Source: Phycisphaerae bacterium (GTDB lineage Bacteria; Planctomycetota; Phycisphaerae; SM23-33). Taken from it: a stretch of DNA of 64,000 nt. The notes under the pieces were generated by a model, which made no database searches, was not told the DNA's origin, and was given only the letters and a program-made list of their open reading frames with translations. The translations under genes and the position numbers were made by a program. Position 1 is the stretch's first letter. Each line of letters begins with the position of its first letter. Location of the stretch: positions 58,358 to 122,357 of the forward strand of contig JASLNT010000058.1 of NCBI GenBank assembly GCA_030745875.1. Direction: 5' to 3'. This document shows positions 1 through 63,904 of the stretch, in pieces.

Positions 1-3000
1 TGTTCTTGGCCATTGCGGGATACATGATCGTGAACTGCAGCGGTCCGCGGATGCTGGTGACGGGCAGGGCGTCGGGCTCTGCTCCGACCTGGGGCGAATC
101 GGTGCGGCTTAGCATGTGTTCGTAGGTGAACTTCGGAGCCTCATTTTCTTCGCGTCCCTTGAGGATTGCGTCGGGATCGTCCTTGGTCTGCGTTCTGACC
201 AGCGAGGATGTGTAGCGTTCGAAGTTGACTTCCTCGACAAGCGGGTCTCCGCCTTCATACAGTTCGTATTTTCTGCGGAATTCCACCCCCGGGTCGGAGT
301 TTTCCGAATCCATATAGCTTACGGTGATAAGGTCTCCGGGCTTGACTTCGATCGTGCCCTTGTCCGCCTTCTTGCCCAGACGCAGCAGCGCCAGGAATTC
401 GCCTGTATGGTGCGTTTCAACTTCCTTGCCTGTCGGGTCCGTAACGACCTGCCCTTCGGTTTCCAGCGCGTCGAGTTCTATGCTCTTTCCGCTGGATGTT
501 TCGACCAGGACCTTCATTACATCGCGTTTGGGCGTGGTGTCGTTGTCGGCTTCGTTTATGAGTATCGCCAACGCATCGCCCACACCGCATCGCTTGGCGG
601 GGAAGTAAGTCGTCTTCATGCCTCCGCCCGTGTCGGTCACCATCTCGTTGGCGATTATGATCGAACCGTTGTAGTACCCCGTCGACAACGACGCCCTGCG
701 GTCGGGCGAGCCGCCCTCGGGCCGCTTGACGTCCACGTAAAGCGCCGTGATCTTATCTCCGGGCGCTATCTCGAGAATGTCGTTGGTTGTCGCCGACGTG
801 AAGTCGCGCTTGATGGGGATCAGCACCTTTCCGTCCGCGTCGATTACGCCGAGTTTCTTGACCGATACGGCGCTGCCTTCGTAGTCGTTAAACACCCATC
901 GGACATCCCGCAGGCGTTTGGGCTCGGTTAGCTGGCAGATAAGGCTGTTGCCTTTGACCCCGATGTGTCCGGCCGGTGACACCGCCGGTATCAGTTCGGG
1001 GTGGTGATCCGCGGAGAACCATGCGGGTTCCAGCGGTGTGAATTCGTCCGCATCATTCTTGTATGTAACGGCGATATCGCAGGCCTTTCGCCCGCAGAGT
1101 GCGACACTGAGCTTGTGCACGCCTTTGGTGAGTTTGACGGTTACCGCGGGCACGAGTTCCGGCGTGGTGTCGCGGTTTCTGCGGCTGGTTCGTCTGAGCA
1201 CTATTTCACCGTCGATGAACAGGCTGGCCCAGCTTTCGGGGCTTTCGAATGACTTGCCCGTGAGTCTGAGCGTCATGTAGCGGGCTTTGGGAACGTAGAA
1301 GCTTCCGCTCATCCGGACGATGCCCCATTCTGCGGCGGGGGCGGTGTACGAAGCGGAGGGGCGGTGGACTGTGCCTTTCCCGCCGCGCTGTTCGAAGTAC
1401 TCGGCGATAGTGGTTGGGTCTGCGCCCTCGACCTTGCCATCGGTAAGGCTGGCGTATTGGACGGCTAGTTCGTCGCGTCGCCGGGCCTGCCCGCCGGGAT
1501 ACATCGCGCTGAGATCGATCGGCGCGCCGCCGCCTTTCGGGCCGGCTGACGTTATCGACAGCGAGGCCTGGGCCTTGGAGGGAATGTAAACCAGTACGAA
1601 GGGCGTTTCGCCCTTGCCCGCGATTGCCGAATCGTCGACGGTTATGGAAGTCTTGCCCGATGCTTTCTTGGGGGCGATGATTTCCTTGCCGCCGACGGTC
1701 AGGCTGGCCTGGCCGTCGGTGTTGATATTGAATGTGTGTTCGCCCGAGGCGGTCGCTACGAAAACACCGCTGTAGCGTACGGCTTCGATGCCTTTTTCGA
1801 CCTTGCTTGTTAGTGCGGTTACAGTCTTTTCGCTGGAGAGTTTGGTCATCGCGGCGTCGGCGAAGTACTCGGCCCGCAATCCTTTCTGCACTCCCGTTAC
1901 CGGATAGCTGGCGATGGTTTGGAAATCTGACGCCAGTCTGGCCTGCAGTTTCACCGATTTGGCTGCAGCGGCGCTGGGCAGGTCGGCGGTGATGGTCTTC
2001 ACAAGGTAAGAGCCCATCATGTCGACGCCCACCGATTTGGGTTTCAGTCCGTCAGCCAGGCTCGACCAGTCGCCCGCGAGAGTGGAGTTGATCAAGGCGG
2101 ACGGTTTCTTGCCTTCAAAAGTATCGGAGGCGTAAGCCTTGGGCAGGGGGACGCCTGTTTTGACCGCTCCGCGGAAGGCTCCCGAATGCGCGTCGCTTTC
2201 GGTCAGTTCGACTGCTTCGATCACGTCGCCGTTAGTTGTGGTCAGCTTGACGGTGACCTTGTCGTTGGCGTTGGTTACGTCCTGATCGACATCGTAGACC
2301 TGGAGGTATATGTCGTTGCCCGGGCGAACCATATTGCCCGAGGTGCGTTTCCACGCAGCCAGCGTGTTCGGATCTACCTTCTTAGCCAGCGTTGCTTCTA
2401 GTCGCTGCTTTTCGGCCTGTTCGGGCGTAAGAATTTTGCCCGCTGATGCGACCAACTGTGCGGTGGTGCGGATGTCGAGGTATTTTGGCGGATAGTCGAT
2501 GTTGTTCTTGCGTTGGAAGTCGGGCGCGATGATGTAGCTGACGCGATCGGCTCCGGTTACTTCGAGGGCTCCGTTGTTTGGTTTGGCCACGCCGAGGGTC
2601 GTGCGGAGCGTACCGGTAAACAGGTTCTTCCCGCCGGCCAGGCTCAGCAAATCCACGCGCTCTTCGTCCTTACCGCTGGTCGTCTGCACCAGAATCGGGA
2701 TGGTCTTCTGGTCGCGTGCGATCGACAGGTTGGCGTCCTGGAGCTTCAGCGCCAGTTCTTCGCCCGGAATCAGAATTCGTCGTGTGGCGGCGGTTCCGAC
2801 CTCCACTTCCGGATTGATCATCCCACCGGGCAGCTTGAGCTTCAGTTGTCCGTCCAGGAAGGCGGCCTCAACGTGATCGTTAACGCAGAGGCGCACTTTG
2901 TCGATGTTCTCGGCGGCGGTTTCGTAGTCTTTTTGCTCGAAGGCGAGGCTGGCCATCAGGTAGTAACCTTCGGCTTTGACTGTCAGGTCGACCGAGTCGA

Positions 3001-6000
3001 TCAGTCTCTCGATAAGCCGCTGGGCGGTGGTGTACTGCCCGGTTGCTATCATCAGGCTCACGAGGTGATAGGTCGCCCGCCCGCCGGCGGGGGTCTTACG
3101 ATATCGAGTGTTGTCCTTCAGTGCGCGATATTCGATTCTGGCTACATCGAAGTTCTTCTTGTCGCGGTATATGTCGCCGCGGGTCAGGAGCACCTGGGCG
3201 GCGATGTCGGCTTCGAGATCGTTTTCTCTGAGCAGCACGGTAAACGCCAACTCCAGCGCCTCGGTGAGCATCTTGTTCTTTCGCATCTGTTCGATGCACC
3301 ATGCGACGTACTGCGGTTCAAAGCTTGTCCACGTTTCCAGCAGCAGTTTCGTTCGTGTGCGCGTAAGCTGCCACGCTCTGCCTTCGTCTCCGAGCGACAG
3401 GACCCGTGCGGCCATGTGCAGGTGGTAGGTCTTGTCGCCTCTGGCGACGGCCATCATGCCCGTGATCTTGTTCGCAGCCTGGGTTCGATACCTGGCGAGG
3501 GCTTTCATCACCGACTCTCGCGGTCGCGCCTGACGCATGCGTTCGAGAATGGTGTACAGAACTTCCCACGCCTCGGTCTTTGTCAGTGTTTTCGCCAGCT
3601 CCACGATGTTCTCGTGATAGGCGCTGTCCCAGTCGGTTCTGGTCTGGGGCAGAGCGCGGAAATACAACGCCCCCAGTCGTACGACGTCATCCCACTGCGA
3701 GGCGGTTATCGCCTTGTCCAGATCGCTTCGCACTTGTCCGGACAATCTGCCCAGAGCGCTCGGGCTTCTCGGTTCGGCTCCGGCGGCGAAACGGGCGATC
3801 AGGATAGGCGTGATCTTGTCGGCGGCTTTGAACAGCTTGCCGTCAGCGCTGTAGGCCTTGCGGTGTTTACGCGATTGTTTCGCCAGCAACGTCATGTCGT
3901 CGACGATGCGATCCGAAACCTTGTGCAGGACCCAGTCGGAATCGGACATGCGGGCGTAGGTGTCGGCGAGTTTTTCGATTACGAGCGTATACGGGCCGGC
4001 CTTCGGTAGTCCGCTCTCGCTTGCGAGAGTAAGGTTGTAGCATACGTATTCCAGGCGTGCGGCGCGGGTGACCGCTCCGAGGCGCCCAAGTCCGGCGACC
4101 AGGTCGTTAATGTTGGCTTCAAGGGCCTTGGACTTTCCGGAATTCCCCAGGATTCGCATCACACCGCATCGTGCGCGAAGGTCTCTCCGCCAGTCGGAGC
4201 GATCCGGAGCCGACAAGTAGGCTCCCCACAACGACGCCAGGGCGCCTTCGGAGACTTTCACCGTTTTGGACGCACGGGCCAGCGAATCGATCACGAACGC
4301 CAGCGTGTCGGGGTCAGTAGGTTTGAACCCGCCGATTCCGGTCAGCTTCGCAACCGCGTCGGCTGCGGCGTCGGGGCTGTCTTTCAACGGTCCCTGCCTG
4401 TTGGAGTGATACCCCATCTGCGTTGCGATGTGTCGCAGCGCATTGTCCCATCCCATCTTCTTGTAGAATTTCGCCAGCGGAGGCGTCTTTGTCTTTCCGT
4501 GGTAGGGGGTGTTAGCCAACTTCTCCCACACGGGATCTCCGGCTGGGATTGCCCCGCCGATTCGGGACATTGCTTGTGTCATTTCCTCTGCGGTAAGGCC
4601 TCTCGCCAGCGTCGCCAGCATGGTTCCCGGGCTTGCGGCTCGCGCCATCCACTGTTTTGCGATAGTAGCTCGCACCAGTCCGCTGCGCGTGCCGTTGTAG
4701 ATGTTTACCATCACCTTCAGCGCCAGGACGTCGTCGCGGTTCTTGCATCCGCTCGCGCCCAGAGGCAGGGGGCGTTTGTACTTGGACAGGAACGCTGACG
4801 CCAGTTCACCGCCTTTGGCCAGTTGCCGCCTGTTGTTGTTGGCCCGACCGGTGAGCACCGCGTAGTTCGACAGGACATCCGCGCCGGTCTTGCCCGCCTT
4901 CCACAGATCGATCAGCGACTTGTACTCGGGAACCTTCTTGACCTGCCCGTTAAGGCTCTTGATCAGTCTGGCCATCGGCTGGGTCTTGTGACCGGCTCCG
5001 GCGCGGGTGAGTTGGTCCCGCACGAGGGCGACTTTCTCGCCGGTCGAAAGGATTTTGCTGTTCAGGATGTTCGAAGTGACGGTGCCTTCGTGGAAGCTGA
5101 CGGGCTTTAAGTCCATATATTCGCGCGCCGCGGCCAGCAGAGATGCTTTATCGCCGATGCCGGCGTACCACTGCATGACCGCCGAGGAGATGTCGCCTCG
5201 GGCGGTGTAGTTGCCCTGGGCGATGAACTTCGCAATTTCGCGCTTGCCTTGAGCGATGAGTTTGTCTCGGTTGGGGTCTGAGGCTCCCTTGATTTTGGGC
5301 AGAAGATAGCGGATAGCGTAGTGAGAATGCCGTGCGGCGTATTGGCGTTTGATTGCGGTGCGTCGCTCGGAACTGACGTAGCGGTCGGCAAGATCGCTGA
5401 TGCGGCGGATGAATTCCCAGTCAGTTCTCCGGGCCTTCTCGGCGATTGACTTGATCATGCCCTCAGCCGCCGATTCGGTCACCAATTCCTTTCCTTTGAT
5501 CCCAAATACGTCTGTGAGATCTACGATGACGCGAAGGTACTCGGAGTAATCCACGGAGTTCGGGGAGTTGCGATAGGTCGGCTCGAGCGCCAGGAAGCGT
5601 CGTCCGGCGGTGAGTTTCTTCTCGTCTGAGCTTAACTTCTGGATCTCCCGGAAGAAGTCGAACACCGATCTGGGAAGTGCTTTTTTGGCGAGTTTCTGGT
5701 GATCGAAAACGATTCCGAGCAGCTCTTCCTTGCTGATTTTACCGGCGGCGCGGGCAAGCAGGCGCGAGTATGGTTCGTAGTTCGAGGGGATAGTCTGCGC
5801 GATCACCTTTATCGGAAGGACGTATGCGTTTTGCTGGTCCGAGCCGAGGCGGTTGTTTTCGGCGGCGTACTGTATTCGCCGATGCACTTCGTAAACCTGT
5901 TGGGGGTGGCGGAAGTTCTCCAGGAGTGTCTGGGCTACGTCGAATGTGGGGTTGATTTCGCTGTCGGTTATCAGTCTGCCCAGCAGATTAGTTCCCATAT

Positions 6001-35376: not shown

Positions 35377-35688
35377 ATGAGTCCGACGATCTTAACGTTG
35401 CTTGGTCCGGGGGAGATGAGCGGTTTATTGGCCGATCGCGCCAAGGCGTTGCGTTTGGGCAAGGGTTGGACCCGGGAAACGCTTGCTTCTCGCGCGGGCG
35501 TTTCGGCGTCCTCGCTCAAGCGGTTCGAGACCAGCGGAAAGGCCTCGCTTGAACTCGTCCTCAAAGTCGCCGGAGCCCTGGCCCGCCTTGACGAGTTCGG
35601 CAAGTTGCTCCAGCCGCCCCCGGCCCGCAGCATCGCCGAACTCGAACACCGCGCCGCCAAACCCAGCCCAAAGCGAGGGCGCATATGA
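35377..35688 (+). CDS. hipB: HipB-like XRE-family antitoxin/repressor
   Basis: LLADRAKALRLGKGWTRETLASRAGVSASSLKRFETSGKASLELVLKVAGAL HTH; directly upstream of hipA with ATGA overlap. ATG at 35377 preferred over the TTG at 35359 used in the track. Confidence 0.82.
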   Translation: MSPTILTLLGPGEMSGLLADRAKALRLGKGWTRETLASRAGVSASSLKRFETSGKASLELVLKVAGALARLDEFGKLLQPPPARSIAELEHRAAKPSPKRGRI

Positions 35689-59820: not shown

Positions 59821-59871
59821 GGCAATTGGCAATTGGCAGTTGGCGATTGGCGACGGCGATTGGCGACAGCC
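59821..59871 (+). repeat. Degenerate heptamer tandem repeat (GGCAATT/GGCGATT)
   Basis: GGCAATTGGCAATTGGCAGTTGGCGATTGGCGACGGCGATTGGCGACAGC read directly. Confidence 0.85.
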
Positions 59872-61439: not shown

Positions 61440-61453
61440 CCCCCCCCCCCCCC
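61440..61453. repeat. Homopolymer tract of 14 C
   Basis: Read directly: ...GTCA(C14)TCAATTG. Confidence 0.95.
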
Positions 61454-61560
61454 TCAATTGTAGTTTCAAGACGACGTAACAGCACCACACAACCCGAAAG
61501 ACGGTAATTACGTGTTGTGTCTCCTTACTACTATCAACTCTTCAACTTTCTCGCGCAGCG
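61454..61560. repeat. 107-bp direct repeat, copy 1
   Basis: TCAATTGTAGTTTCAAGACGACGTAACAGCACCACACAACCCGAAAGACGGTAATTACGTGTTGTGT... to ...GCGCAGCG; near-identical to 61950-62056. Confidence 0.95.
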
Positions 61561-61768
61561 CGGTGTTCGCCGAATCTCGTGGCGTAATCGCTGTAGCATC
61601 CGGTTGCAAGGAGTGTCGCATTGGAGTTGCTCTGCAGTTGTTTGCGGATGGTTTGGTGGGTCCTGCGCATGGCCGGTGCGGTTACGCAGCATGTGTTGAC
61701 AGTCACCAGGGTGGGAAAGCTGTTTGCTTCGCCCCGCAACAACAACCATTAGAAAAAAGGACTACGCC

Positions 61769-61906
61769 ATGAACAACACGCCATTAGATATAGCTGTAAC
61801 AGCATTGGGTATAGTGACCTGCATCGCCTTCTGCCTTATGGCGCTCTCGCTGTACGTGGTAATTTGGGATGCGTTGTCGAAGCGAAGACGGAAGAAACAC
61901 CGCTGA
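61769..61906 (+). CDS. Small single-pass membrane protein (45 aa)
   Basis: MNNTPLDIAVTALGIVTCIAFCLMALSLYVVIWDALSKRRRKKHR*; AAAAAAGGA RBS about 8 nt upstream; TM helix plus basic tail. Confidence 0.6.
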   Translation: MNNTPLDIAVTALGIVTCIAFCLMALSLYVVIWDALSKRRRKKHR

Positions 61907-61949
61907 AGTCCATCACGGACTACGCCCCTGAATTCGGGTGTCAGTATAC

Positions 61950-62056
61950 TCAATTGTAGTTTCAAAACGACTTAACAGCACCACACAACCCGAAAGACGG
62001 TAATTACGTGTTGTGTCTTCTTACTACTCTCAACATTTCTACTATCTTGCGCAGCG
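61950..62056. repeat. 107-bp direct repeat, copy 2
   Basis: TCAATTGTAGTTTCAAAACGACTTAACAGCACCACACAACCCGAAAGACGGTAATTACGTGTTGTGT... to ...GCGCAGCG; substitutions only, no indels against copy 1. Confidence 0.95.
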
Positions 62057-62083: not shown

Positions 62084-62941
62084 TTAGGGGTTTTGTTCCC
62101 GTTTCTTAGCCCGTCTGTTCTTCTGCTTCTCGAATTCTTGCGCTTGCCATGTGGCATGCGGCACCATGTTCAGGTGAAGCTGCTGGGTAATGTCACAAAG
62201 TTCATATATGTCTCGAACCAAGAGCATCTTCTGCAGATATACAGGGAACTGCTTTCCTTTCCAGCATATCGGAGGACCATCGAAGTCGAACAGTTCGGTC
62301 CCCGTAAGAACCAGCACCGGATTATGCCACATGTCACCCCTCCATATCTCGCGCCCCTTCTTTGCCAAGAGGGCAATCCTGGTTATCTCCTCGGACGTGA
62401 GTTCTGTCCTCAACGTGCAAAAGGCGATCGTGCTGCCAGGAAATATTGCTGCCAACGTTGCCATTCTATCGACATCCCTCTTCTTGAAGGGACCGTAGCT
62501 CTTGCATTCTCCCAGGACCAGAATCGGTTCACGGCCACAGTGTCCCCTACCTATTCGACCGCAGAATGCGGCGAGATCTGCCTCCAACGGTTTCTTTCCC
62601 TTCTCCTGTAGGTCAACGCCAGGTAGCCACGTCATACCGTCCAGGCCGTGTGAAGCGAGTTGACCGATTGTGCGGAGAGCAAGTCCCACTGTATAACTCC
62701 CCTGTGCATAGTTCTCGATGGCAAATGGGCCAACGACACGATAATGCCATTCTGCAGATTTTGGTTCCCCGATGGGAAACGAAAACATCTCCAAACATCG
62801 CTCGCATTGGAGATCCTCGGAGAGGGAGTCCAATGCGTACCAACTATGTTGACCACAATGTTCGCATTTTACTCGTAGGCCCAACCGAAGGACTCCATGC
62901 TCCAAAAGATGTGCAAGTGTATCTTCGGCAGGATGGTACAC
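62084..62941 (-). CDS. Zinc-ribbon plus PD-(D/E)XK-like nuclease-fold protein, possibly 5'-truncated
   Basis: CEHCGQHSWYALDSLSEDLQCERC zinc ribbon; LEADLAAF...EPILVLGECKSYG (E-x-K core) then RDVDRMATLAAIFPG. GTG start with no clear RBS; frame open upstream to a stop near 62990. Confidence 0.55.
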   Translation of the reverse strand: MYHPAEDTLAHLLEHGVLRLGLRVKCEHCGQHSWYALDSLSEDLQCERCLEMFSFPIGEPKSAEWHYRVVGPFAIENYAQGSYTVGLALRTIGQLASHGLDGMTWLPGVDLQEKGKKPLEADLAAFCGRIGRGHCGREPILVLGECKSYGPFKKRDVDRMATLAAIFPGSTIAFCTLRTELTSEEITRIALLAKKGREIWRGDMWHNPVLVLTGTELFDFDGPPICWKGKQFPVYLQKMLLVRDIYELCDITQQLHLNMVPHATWQAQEFEKQKNRRAKKREQNP

Positions 62942-62995: not shown

Positions 62996-63904
62996 CTATC
63001 CACCTGCAAGTTGTGTCTTATCTGAGCGAAAGGCTTGAATGAAGCTATCAGATATTCGGGTTCCTCCCGCAAGATCAAGCCAAGCCCATTGCCCATTGGG
63101 ATTGATTTCAAGAAAGTACCACTCGCCAAGACGATCAATCACAAAATCTACGGCAGCAAAGCGAAGAGAATAGCTGCGAAGCAACTTCAGCAAGCAATTT
63201 TCGACATCCTCAGGGATAAGGATGTGGGTATACTCAACACCTGTCATGTTATCTCGCCGTATGTCCTGTAGTTGCGTGCCGTGGTCATCTCGGCGGGACA
63301 GTTCAACAGCGTGTATGTCTGAGTCCACAACGGTCACACGCACGTCGACTCTCTTGTCTACCGCCTGTTGAAGTAGCGTCGGACATTTCGGAAGAAGAGA
63401 AAACTCTTTAACGTCATCCGCTTTTACACGCCTTGTATACAGGAGGCCGTCTGACGCATCTGCCCGTTTGATCTCTCCGGGAGATAGAGGTTTTATTACC
63501 ATGGCCCCTTTCCATTGCGACCATTTCCTCGAAGCAACAACAGGGTCCCGCGTGAGAATCGTATCTGGAACACTCAAACCAAACCTCGATGCTCTCGTCA
63601 ACTGCTCAAGTTTGGATGAAGCGATTGCGTTGTATGCAGGATGGTTAATCCATCGCTTCCGTGGGATACTGGCAAAGAATCCCTCAATTGCCTCGCTCCA
63701 CTCGTGTTCCATGAATCGCCTTGCACCAGCATCTGGACTTTGGGGTAGTTCTAGGGGTTTGGGGCGCCTCATCCAAACGCTCGATACATCGCTGGGCCTG
63801 ATGGTTGTGTTTTGGGTGTGCAATGACACGCACAAATCCGAGAATTCGACAAATAGGTCGCCCAATTCACAGTCCGTATTCAATCTGAGAAGAGGCAATC
63901 CCAT
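62996..63904 (-). CDS. ATP-grasp ligase, MvdD/graspetide-maturase-like
   Basis: Pre-ATP-grasp-like LPLLRLNTDCELGDLFVEF...SSVWMRRPKP; INHPAYNAIASSKLEQLTRASRFGLSVPDTILTRDP; VIKPLSPGEI; RFAAVDFVIDRLGEWYFLEINPNGQWAWLDLAGG. Confidence 0.72.
   Translation of the reverse strand: MGLPLLRLNTDCELGDLFVEFSDLCVSLHTQNTTIRPSDVSSVWMRRPKPLELPQSPDAGARRFMEHEWSEAIEGFFASIPRKRWINHPAYNAIASSKLEQLTRASRFGLSVPDTILTRDPVVASRKWSQWKGAMVIKPLSPGEIKRADASDGLLYTRRVKADDVKEFSLLPKCPTLLQQAVDKRVDVRVTVVDSDIHAVELSRRDDHGTQLQDIRRDNMTGVEYTHILIPEDVENCLLKLLRSYSLRFAAVDFVIDRLGEWYFLEINPNGQWAWLDLAGGTRISDSFIQAFRSDKTQLAGG

What the first reader, a model, noticed from the sequence alone, without database searches (positions are those of the whole stretch)
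61454..62056. Near-identical 107-bp direct repeats with a conserved hairpin, 496 bp apart
61454-61560 and 61950-62056 are the same length and highly similar. Each contains a conserved arm pair ACACAACcCG...CGtGTTGTGT around AAAGACGGTAATTA. The copies bracket a short segment with a single tiny ORF, giving a cassette-like layout. Options are a structured RNA family, an integron-attC-like site, or a MITE-type repeat. I could not match attC core motifs confidently.
Basis: partly seen in the sequence, partly recalled or inferred. Interest (0 to 1): 0.7.

Follow-up and report, generated by a model that had tools for sequence, protein, structure and literature searches.

The report
Decayed mobile palindromic repeats between genes
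Two near-identical 108-base repeats in a planctomycete genome are worn remnants of two small dispersed palindromic repeat families, one of which ends like the terminal repeats of single-strand transposases encoded in the same genome; they are not gene-capture (integron) sites and show no sign of being a structured RNA.

Summary
The repeats are real: 61453-61560 and 61949-62056, 99/108 identical, 496 bp apart. Only these two full copies exist in the genome held, but each is a composite of two modules found separately elsewhere. Module A (left ~70 nt) is a diverged member of an imperfect-palindrome family (core about 58 nt, full length 65-105 nt), sometimes lying just after stop codons in the same genus. 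A model built only from the other species recovers both window copies as its top two hits. Module B (right ~40 nt, extended to 62078 in copy 2) carries the end GGGGTCAGCCC, the start of the terminal inverted repeats around Y1 (REP/TIR-associated tyrosine) transposase genes in this genome. The attC idea fails. The genome has a true integron integrase and at least 34 attC-model hits, none found on this contig, and the attC model finds nothing credible in the window. The RNA idea gets no support: ordinary folding energy, no covariation beyond shuffles, no Rfam match. Most likely these are REP/TIR-type (MITE-like) remnants spread by Y1 transposases; mobilisation is inferred, not shown, and for module A no cognate transposase was found.

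The parts
61453..61560 (.). repeat copy 1 (module A + truncated module B)
61949..62056 (.). repeat copy 2 (module A + module B)
61478..61529 (-). module A palindrome core, copy 1
   Evidence: covariance model R3, 55 bits (model includes this copy); HMM built without the window copies finds 61487-61523, E 1.6e-4
61974..62025 (-). module A palindrome core, copy 2
   Evidence: R3 52 bits (model includes this copy); HMM without window copies finds 61983-62018, E 6.4e-4
61930..61955 (+). outer arm of module A in copy 2 (GAATTCGGGTGTCAGTATACTCAATT); not recognisable in copy 1, where a C14 tract (61440-61453) stands instead
   Evidence: local alignment with outer ends of elements on C19/C118: 1 and 5 of 2000 shuffles as good; copy 1 flank no better than shuffles for C19/C118, 64 of 2000 for C47
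62017..62078 (-). module B in copy 2: pyrimidine tract with CTTACTACT..CTACTAT, GCGCAGCG, then GGGCTGATCCCGACGCCCC (reverse strand: GGGGCGTCGGGATCAGCCC), a GGGGTCAG-type transposase end
   Evidence: same end on C8 (two tandem copies) and C19; TIRs of Y1 transposase genes on C103, C70
61521..61560 (-). module B in copy 1, lacking the GGGGTCAG-type end
61769..61906 (+). small ORF (45 aa, with a hydrophobic stretch) between the copies; not part of the repeat
   Evidence: no Pfam or NCBIfam match

Best explanation
The two repeats are degenerate copies of a composite of two small non-autonomous repeat elements of the REP/TIR (MITE-like) kind. Module A is an imperfect palindrome of about 60-105 nt with ends of the GGGGACAC..TAATTA type. 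Module B is a solo terminal repeat of the GGGGTCAGCCC type. Elements of this kind are thought to be spread by Y1/HUH single-strand transposases (RAYT/TIRYT), which recognise hairpins or terminal repeats in single-stranded DNA and cut and rejoin them without leaving target duplications. Shown: family membership of both modules, palindromic symmetry in the better-preserved members, intergenic position (in several cases just after stop codons), and Y1 transposase genes in the same genome bracketed by GGGGTCAGCCC repeats. Inferred: that a Y1 transposase moved them; that the window pair arose by local duplication or re-insertion of an already fused A+B unit; that today they are inert or at most act as transcribed 3'-end hairpins.
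For: Module A alone at G000:C118 (81% over 62 bp; 69 bits) and in a second species of the genus, G002, at C13, C32 and C12. R3 finds 11, 2 and 16 hits in the three genomes of the genus at E<=1; several are hit on both strands at the same place, i.e. true palindromes. An HMM from G002 elements only finds exactly the two window copies first (E 3.8e-4 and 1.6e-3; best control hit E 2.1). In G002, elements begin 7-10 nt after stop codons at two places (L072: stop 13866/element 13876; stop 16770/element 16778). Copy 2 carries the family's outer end. Module B is found without A on C8 (twice, as a 42-bp tandem), C19 and in G002. Y1_Tnp genes L015, L016, L097, L100 are flanked by GGGGTCAGCCC repeats and L101-L104 by GGGGTCAGAGC-type repeats; NCBIfam places L016 nearest to REP-associated tyrosine transposase, 75 bits against a cut-off of 80. 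The published TIRYT terminal-repeat consensus is GGGGWSAS (PMC3733652; PMC6006769); both module ends fit it in the better-preserved copies.
Against: No Y1 gene flanked by module A ends was found in the held genomes. The only links are one Y1 gene (G001:C166, L108) with a related palindrome about 70 nt downstream, and one decayed Y1 frame with an A-like end nearby (G002:C395, L107); chance cannot be excluded. The module B end shares only the first 11 nt, and the spacer between tandem units, with the TIRs of the transposases present. Copy numbers are low. No empty site or mobility event was seen.
Confidence: 0.72

Rival explanations
1. The pair is simply a local duplication of one 108-bp stretch (DNA copied 496 bp away) with no mobile-element activity at this locus.
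For: The fused A+B unit occurs only here in the genome. The copies are in direct orientation, close together, and 92% identical.
Against: Both modules occur separately elsewhere, so the content is repeat-family DNA. Nothing outside the unit is shared. This is a statement about the last step, and is compatible with the main explanation.
Confidence: 0.4
2. Integron attC (or attC-like) recombination sites bracketing a gene cassette.
For: Imperfect palindrome with AAC/GTT near the core. The genome does have an integron integrase (C4, 422 bits, cut-off 265). One module A copy in G002 lies about 25 nt from an attC site.
Against: A covariance model from five attC sites of the genus finds 34 attC hits in this genome but none on contig C58 (only 150 candidates per genome were scored). 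Searched directly, the window gives only a chance-level 12.7-bit hit at 35596. R and L boxes, spacing and length do not fit. The flanking genes are not separated by attC.
Confidence: 0.02
3. A structured regulatory RNA or terminator at 3' ends of genes.
For: Palindromes lie close after stop codons in several loci; copy 2 lies between convergent ORFs (ends 61906 and 62084).
Against: No Rfam family. Folding energy like shuffled sequence (z -0.4, -0.3 on +; +0.5, +0.8 on -). Covariation not above shuffles (3 pairs with double changes, 415/500 shuffles as high). No T-run typical of an intrinsic terminator beside the hairpin.
Confidence: 0.1
4. Module A is a MITE of a DDE insertion sequence (not of a Y1 transposase), with GGGGACAC..TAATTA terminal inverted repeats.
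For: Full-length copies (C118, C47, C82, C19) have about 20-bp terminal inverted repeats and 68-105 nt length, the size range of bacterial MITEs (PMC3733652).
Against: No target duplication seen by eye at C47, C50 or C82. No IS with these ends was encountered, but no dedicated search was made for DDE families. The ends fit the Y1 GGGGWSAS consensus.
Confidence: 0.15

Closest known systems
TIR repeats of TIRYT (TIR-associated tyrosine transposase) elements, 'TIRtrons' (Di Nocera et al. 2013, PMC3733652)
   Same: GGGGWSAS-type ends, dispersed solo/dimeric/tandem copies, some self-complementary, Y1 transposase genes with the same end motif in the genome
   Different: Module A has no identified transposase; module B differs from the resident transposases' TIRs after the first 11 nt; the window copies are degenerate and fused into one composite unit
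REP / REPIN elements of RAYT transposases (PMC3116915, PMC6006769)
   Same: Short intergenic palindromes, sometimes just downstream of genes, related Y1 transposases in the genome
   Different: Longer palindrome (58-105 nt rather than 20-40 nt); no GTAG tag at a fixed hairpin foot; low copy number; direct rather than inverted pair
Integron attC sites
   Same: Imperfect palindrome with AAC/GTT, intergenic
   Different: No match to the attC model built from the same genus; no R/L-box architecture; no array on this contig
Bacterial MITEs (e.g. NEMIS, ERIC)
   Same: About 70-110 nt, terminal inverted repeats, no coding capacity
   Different: No target duplication seen; no parent DDE element identified

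Membership tests
Integron attC site | match to attC sequence/structure model (R'', L'', L', R' boxes) | tested here: not met
   Model R2 from five attC of the genus: no credible hit in the window, none on C58 (150 candidates per genome scored)
Integron attC site | integron integrase in the genome | tested here: met
   C4:2119-3066, 422 bits, but on another contig
TIRYT terminal repeat (TIR repeat) | GGGGWSAS motif at the end | tested here: inconclusive
   Exact in module B on C8/C19; one mismatch in window copy 2 (GGGATCAG); absent in copy 1; module A ends GGGGACAC exact on C19/C47, degenerate in the window
TIRYT terminal repeat (TIR repeat) | same repeat brackets a Y1 transposase gene in the genome | tested here: inconclusive
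   GGGGTCAGCCC brackets Y1 genes on C103 and C70, but the rest of module B differs; no Y1 gene bracketed by module A
TIRYT terminal repeat (TIR repeat) | dispersed, often dimeric or clustered copies | tested here: met
   (module A pair on G002:C12); tandem module B on C8
REP (GTAG type) | 20-40 nt hairpin with GTAG at its foot | tested here: not met
   Palindrome core is about 58 nt; GATC rather than GTAG flanks most members; the GTAG in the window is not conserved (C118: ACAG)
Structured RNA family | covariation supporting a stem | tested here: not met
DDE-type MITE | target-site duplication and parent IS | tested here: inconclusive
   No duplication seen by eye at three full-length copies; parent IS not systematically searched

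The most novel reading that the evidence does not exclude
Module A is an undescribed palindromic element family of this planctomycete genus with its own, unidentified mobiliser, and modules A and B travel together as a composite mobile unit.
Probability: 0.2. Interest if true: 0.4.

Novelty: new member of a known kind. Interest (0 to 1): 0.2.

Why it matters
It shows that an attC-looking repeat pair in a genome that really has an integron is something else, using the genus's own attC sites as control. It adds one low-copy palindromic family and one TIR variant, in a little-studied phylum, to the REP/TIR repeats linked to single-strand transposases. Otherwise it is ordinary intergenic repeat debris.

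Tried and rejected
Rfam scan of the window: nothing. Search for the fused unit in plasmids: none; of a family end in plasmids: one chance-level 21-nt hit. Exact module B core in viral contigs: none. Y1 genes L011-L014 (IS200-type, 153-181 aa frames) lack these ends. A regex scan for attC by R boxes and folding was too loose to use by itself and was replaced by the covariance model.

Full report
OBSERVATION. The two repeats are as reported: 61453-61560 and 61949-62056, 99 of 108 positions identical, no gaps, 496 bp apart. Seven of nine differences fall in the last 41 nt; the stretch 61477-61522 is identical in both. The window is the end of contig C58 (122,357 bp) of a 6.2 Mb, 131-contig draft genome. 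Other direct repeats in the window of comparable length are 70-78% identical, so this pair stands out.

COPIES ELSEWHERE. The full 108-bp unit has no third copy in the genome. But the right part matches C19 and C8 alone, and the left part matches C118 alone, 81% over 62 bp. So the unit is a composite. Module A is the left ~70 nt. Module B is the right ~40 nt, and in copy 2 it continues to 62078.

MODULE A. A sequence model of the window copies and C118 finds three more in a congener, G002 (C13 E 3e-8; C32 and C12 E about 0.005). Reading those contigs shows a clear family of imperfect palindromes, for example GATCGAGGGACGCAAAACATAATTATTGTCTCGCACATGAGAGTTATGTATTGCGTCC (L071:5324). Elements start 7-10 nt after stop codons at two places on L072. 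A structural model finds 11, 2 and 16 places in the window's genome and two congeners at E<=1, several on both strands at once, as expected for palindromes (only 150 candidates per genome were scored, so these may be undercounts). The independent test: an HMM built only from G002 elements, scanned over the window and two controls, has the two window copies as its top two hits (E 3.8e-4 and 1.6e-3); the best control hit is E 2.1. Full-length elements on C118, C19, C47 and C82 run to outer ends resembling TTCGGGGGACACNNTACTTAATTA. Copy 2 in the window retains such an end at 61930-61955 (1 of 2000 and 5 of 2000 shuffles as good against C19 and C118), while copy 1 has a C14 tract there.

PAIRING. 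Neither exceeds column shuffles in covariation. Single-copy folding energies are ordinary. The palindrome is therefore best read as DNA symmetry, not as an evolved RNA fold.

MODULE B. The end on C8 is GGGGTCAGCCCAGCGCTGCGCGAGATAGTAG, in two tandem 42-bp units; C19 has one copy. Window copy 2 has GGGATCAGCCCAACGCTGCGCAAGATAGTAG on the minus strand. In the same genome, Y1 transposase genes on C103 and C70 (340 and 343 aa, Y1_Tnp 56 and 53 bits) are bracketed by inverted GGGGTCAGCCCTTAAAATATAAAATA (one mismatch at the downstream end on C103); on C70 the downstream end is a tandem with spacer GTGGGGGGCATT, resembling the spacer AGGGGGGCGTC on C8. Congener genes have GGGGTCAGCCC or GGGGTCAGAGC ends. 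The published motif for such ends is GGGGWSAS (PMC3733652, PMC6006769). GGGGTCAG and GGGGACAC both fit.

INTEGRON TEST. The genome has a true integron integrase at C4:2119-3066 (422 bits, curated cut-off 265) and cassettes with attC beside it. Five attC from the genus gave model R2. It finds 34, 16 and 30 hits in the three genomes at E<=0.1, none on C58, and in the window only a chance-level 12.7-bit hit at 35596. The attC reading is therefore rejected with a working positive control.

MECHANISM. Shown: dispersed palindromic family (A), dispersed terminal-repeat family (B), resident Y1 transposases with the B-type end motif, intergenic positions. Inferred: spread by Y1 transposases as non-autonomous elements; fusion of A and B; local copying to make the pair. 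For A the mobiliser is unknown; the nearest hints are a Y1 gene with a related palindrome about 70 nt downstream on G001:C166 and a decayed Y1 frame near an A-like end on G002:C395, which could be chance.

CAVEATS. Draft genomes miss repeat copies. E-values from the session's covariance models are rough. R3 includes the window copies, hence the separate HMM test. Target duplications were judged by eye on few copies.

Noticed in passing
L091 (G000:C4) 1-3147: Bona fide chromosomal integron in the window's genome: intI at 2113-3147 and at least two upstream cassettes with canonical attC (about 240-312 and 923-981). 34 attC-model hits in the genome (C16, C71, C81, C96 hold several each).
   Followed up: partly
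window 62996-63904 (-): ATP-grasp ribosomal peptide maturase relative (NCBIfam GRASP_SAV_5884 217 bits, MvdC 163, MvdD 136, all below their curated cut-offs): possible graspetide locus cut by the contig end; the 285-aa neighbour 62084-62941 has no Pfam or NCBIfam match.
   Followed up: partly
L016 (G000:C70:11336-14665): A Y1 transposase gene with GGGGTCAGCCC terminal repeats lies about 0.8 kb from an attC site (C70:11918-11976), suggesting insertion near or into a cassette.
   Followed up: no
L039 (G002:C32) 1405-1560: A module A element lies about 25 nt beyond an attC site at the edge of a cassette.
   Followed up: partly
window 59825-59868: Heptad-like repeat attggca/attggcg between genes, of the same low-complexity kind as the GTAGAAA-like tract of module B.
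   Followed up: no
L073:2177, L074:5798, L074:7765 (G002): A further repeat type: GGGACRCAATAMACAACTCTC followed by a CTTTCGGG.CGGGCTT palindrome, possibly another related family.
   Followed up: no
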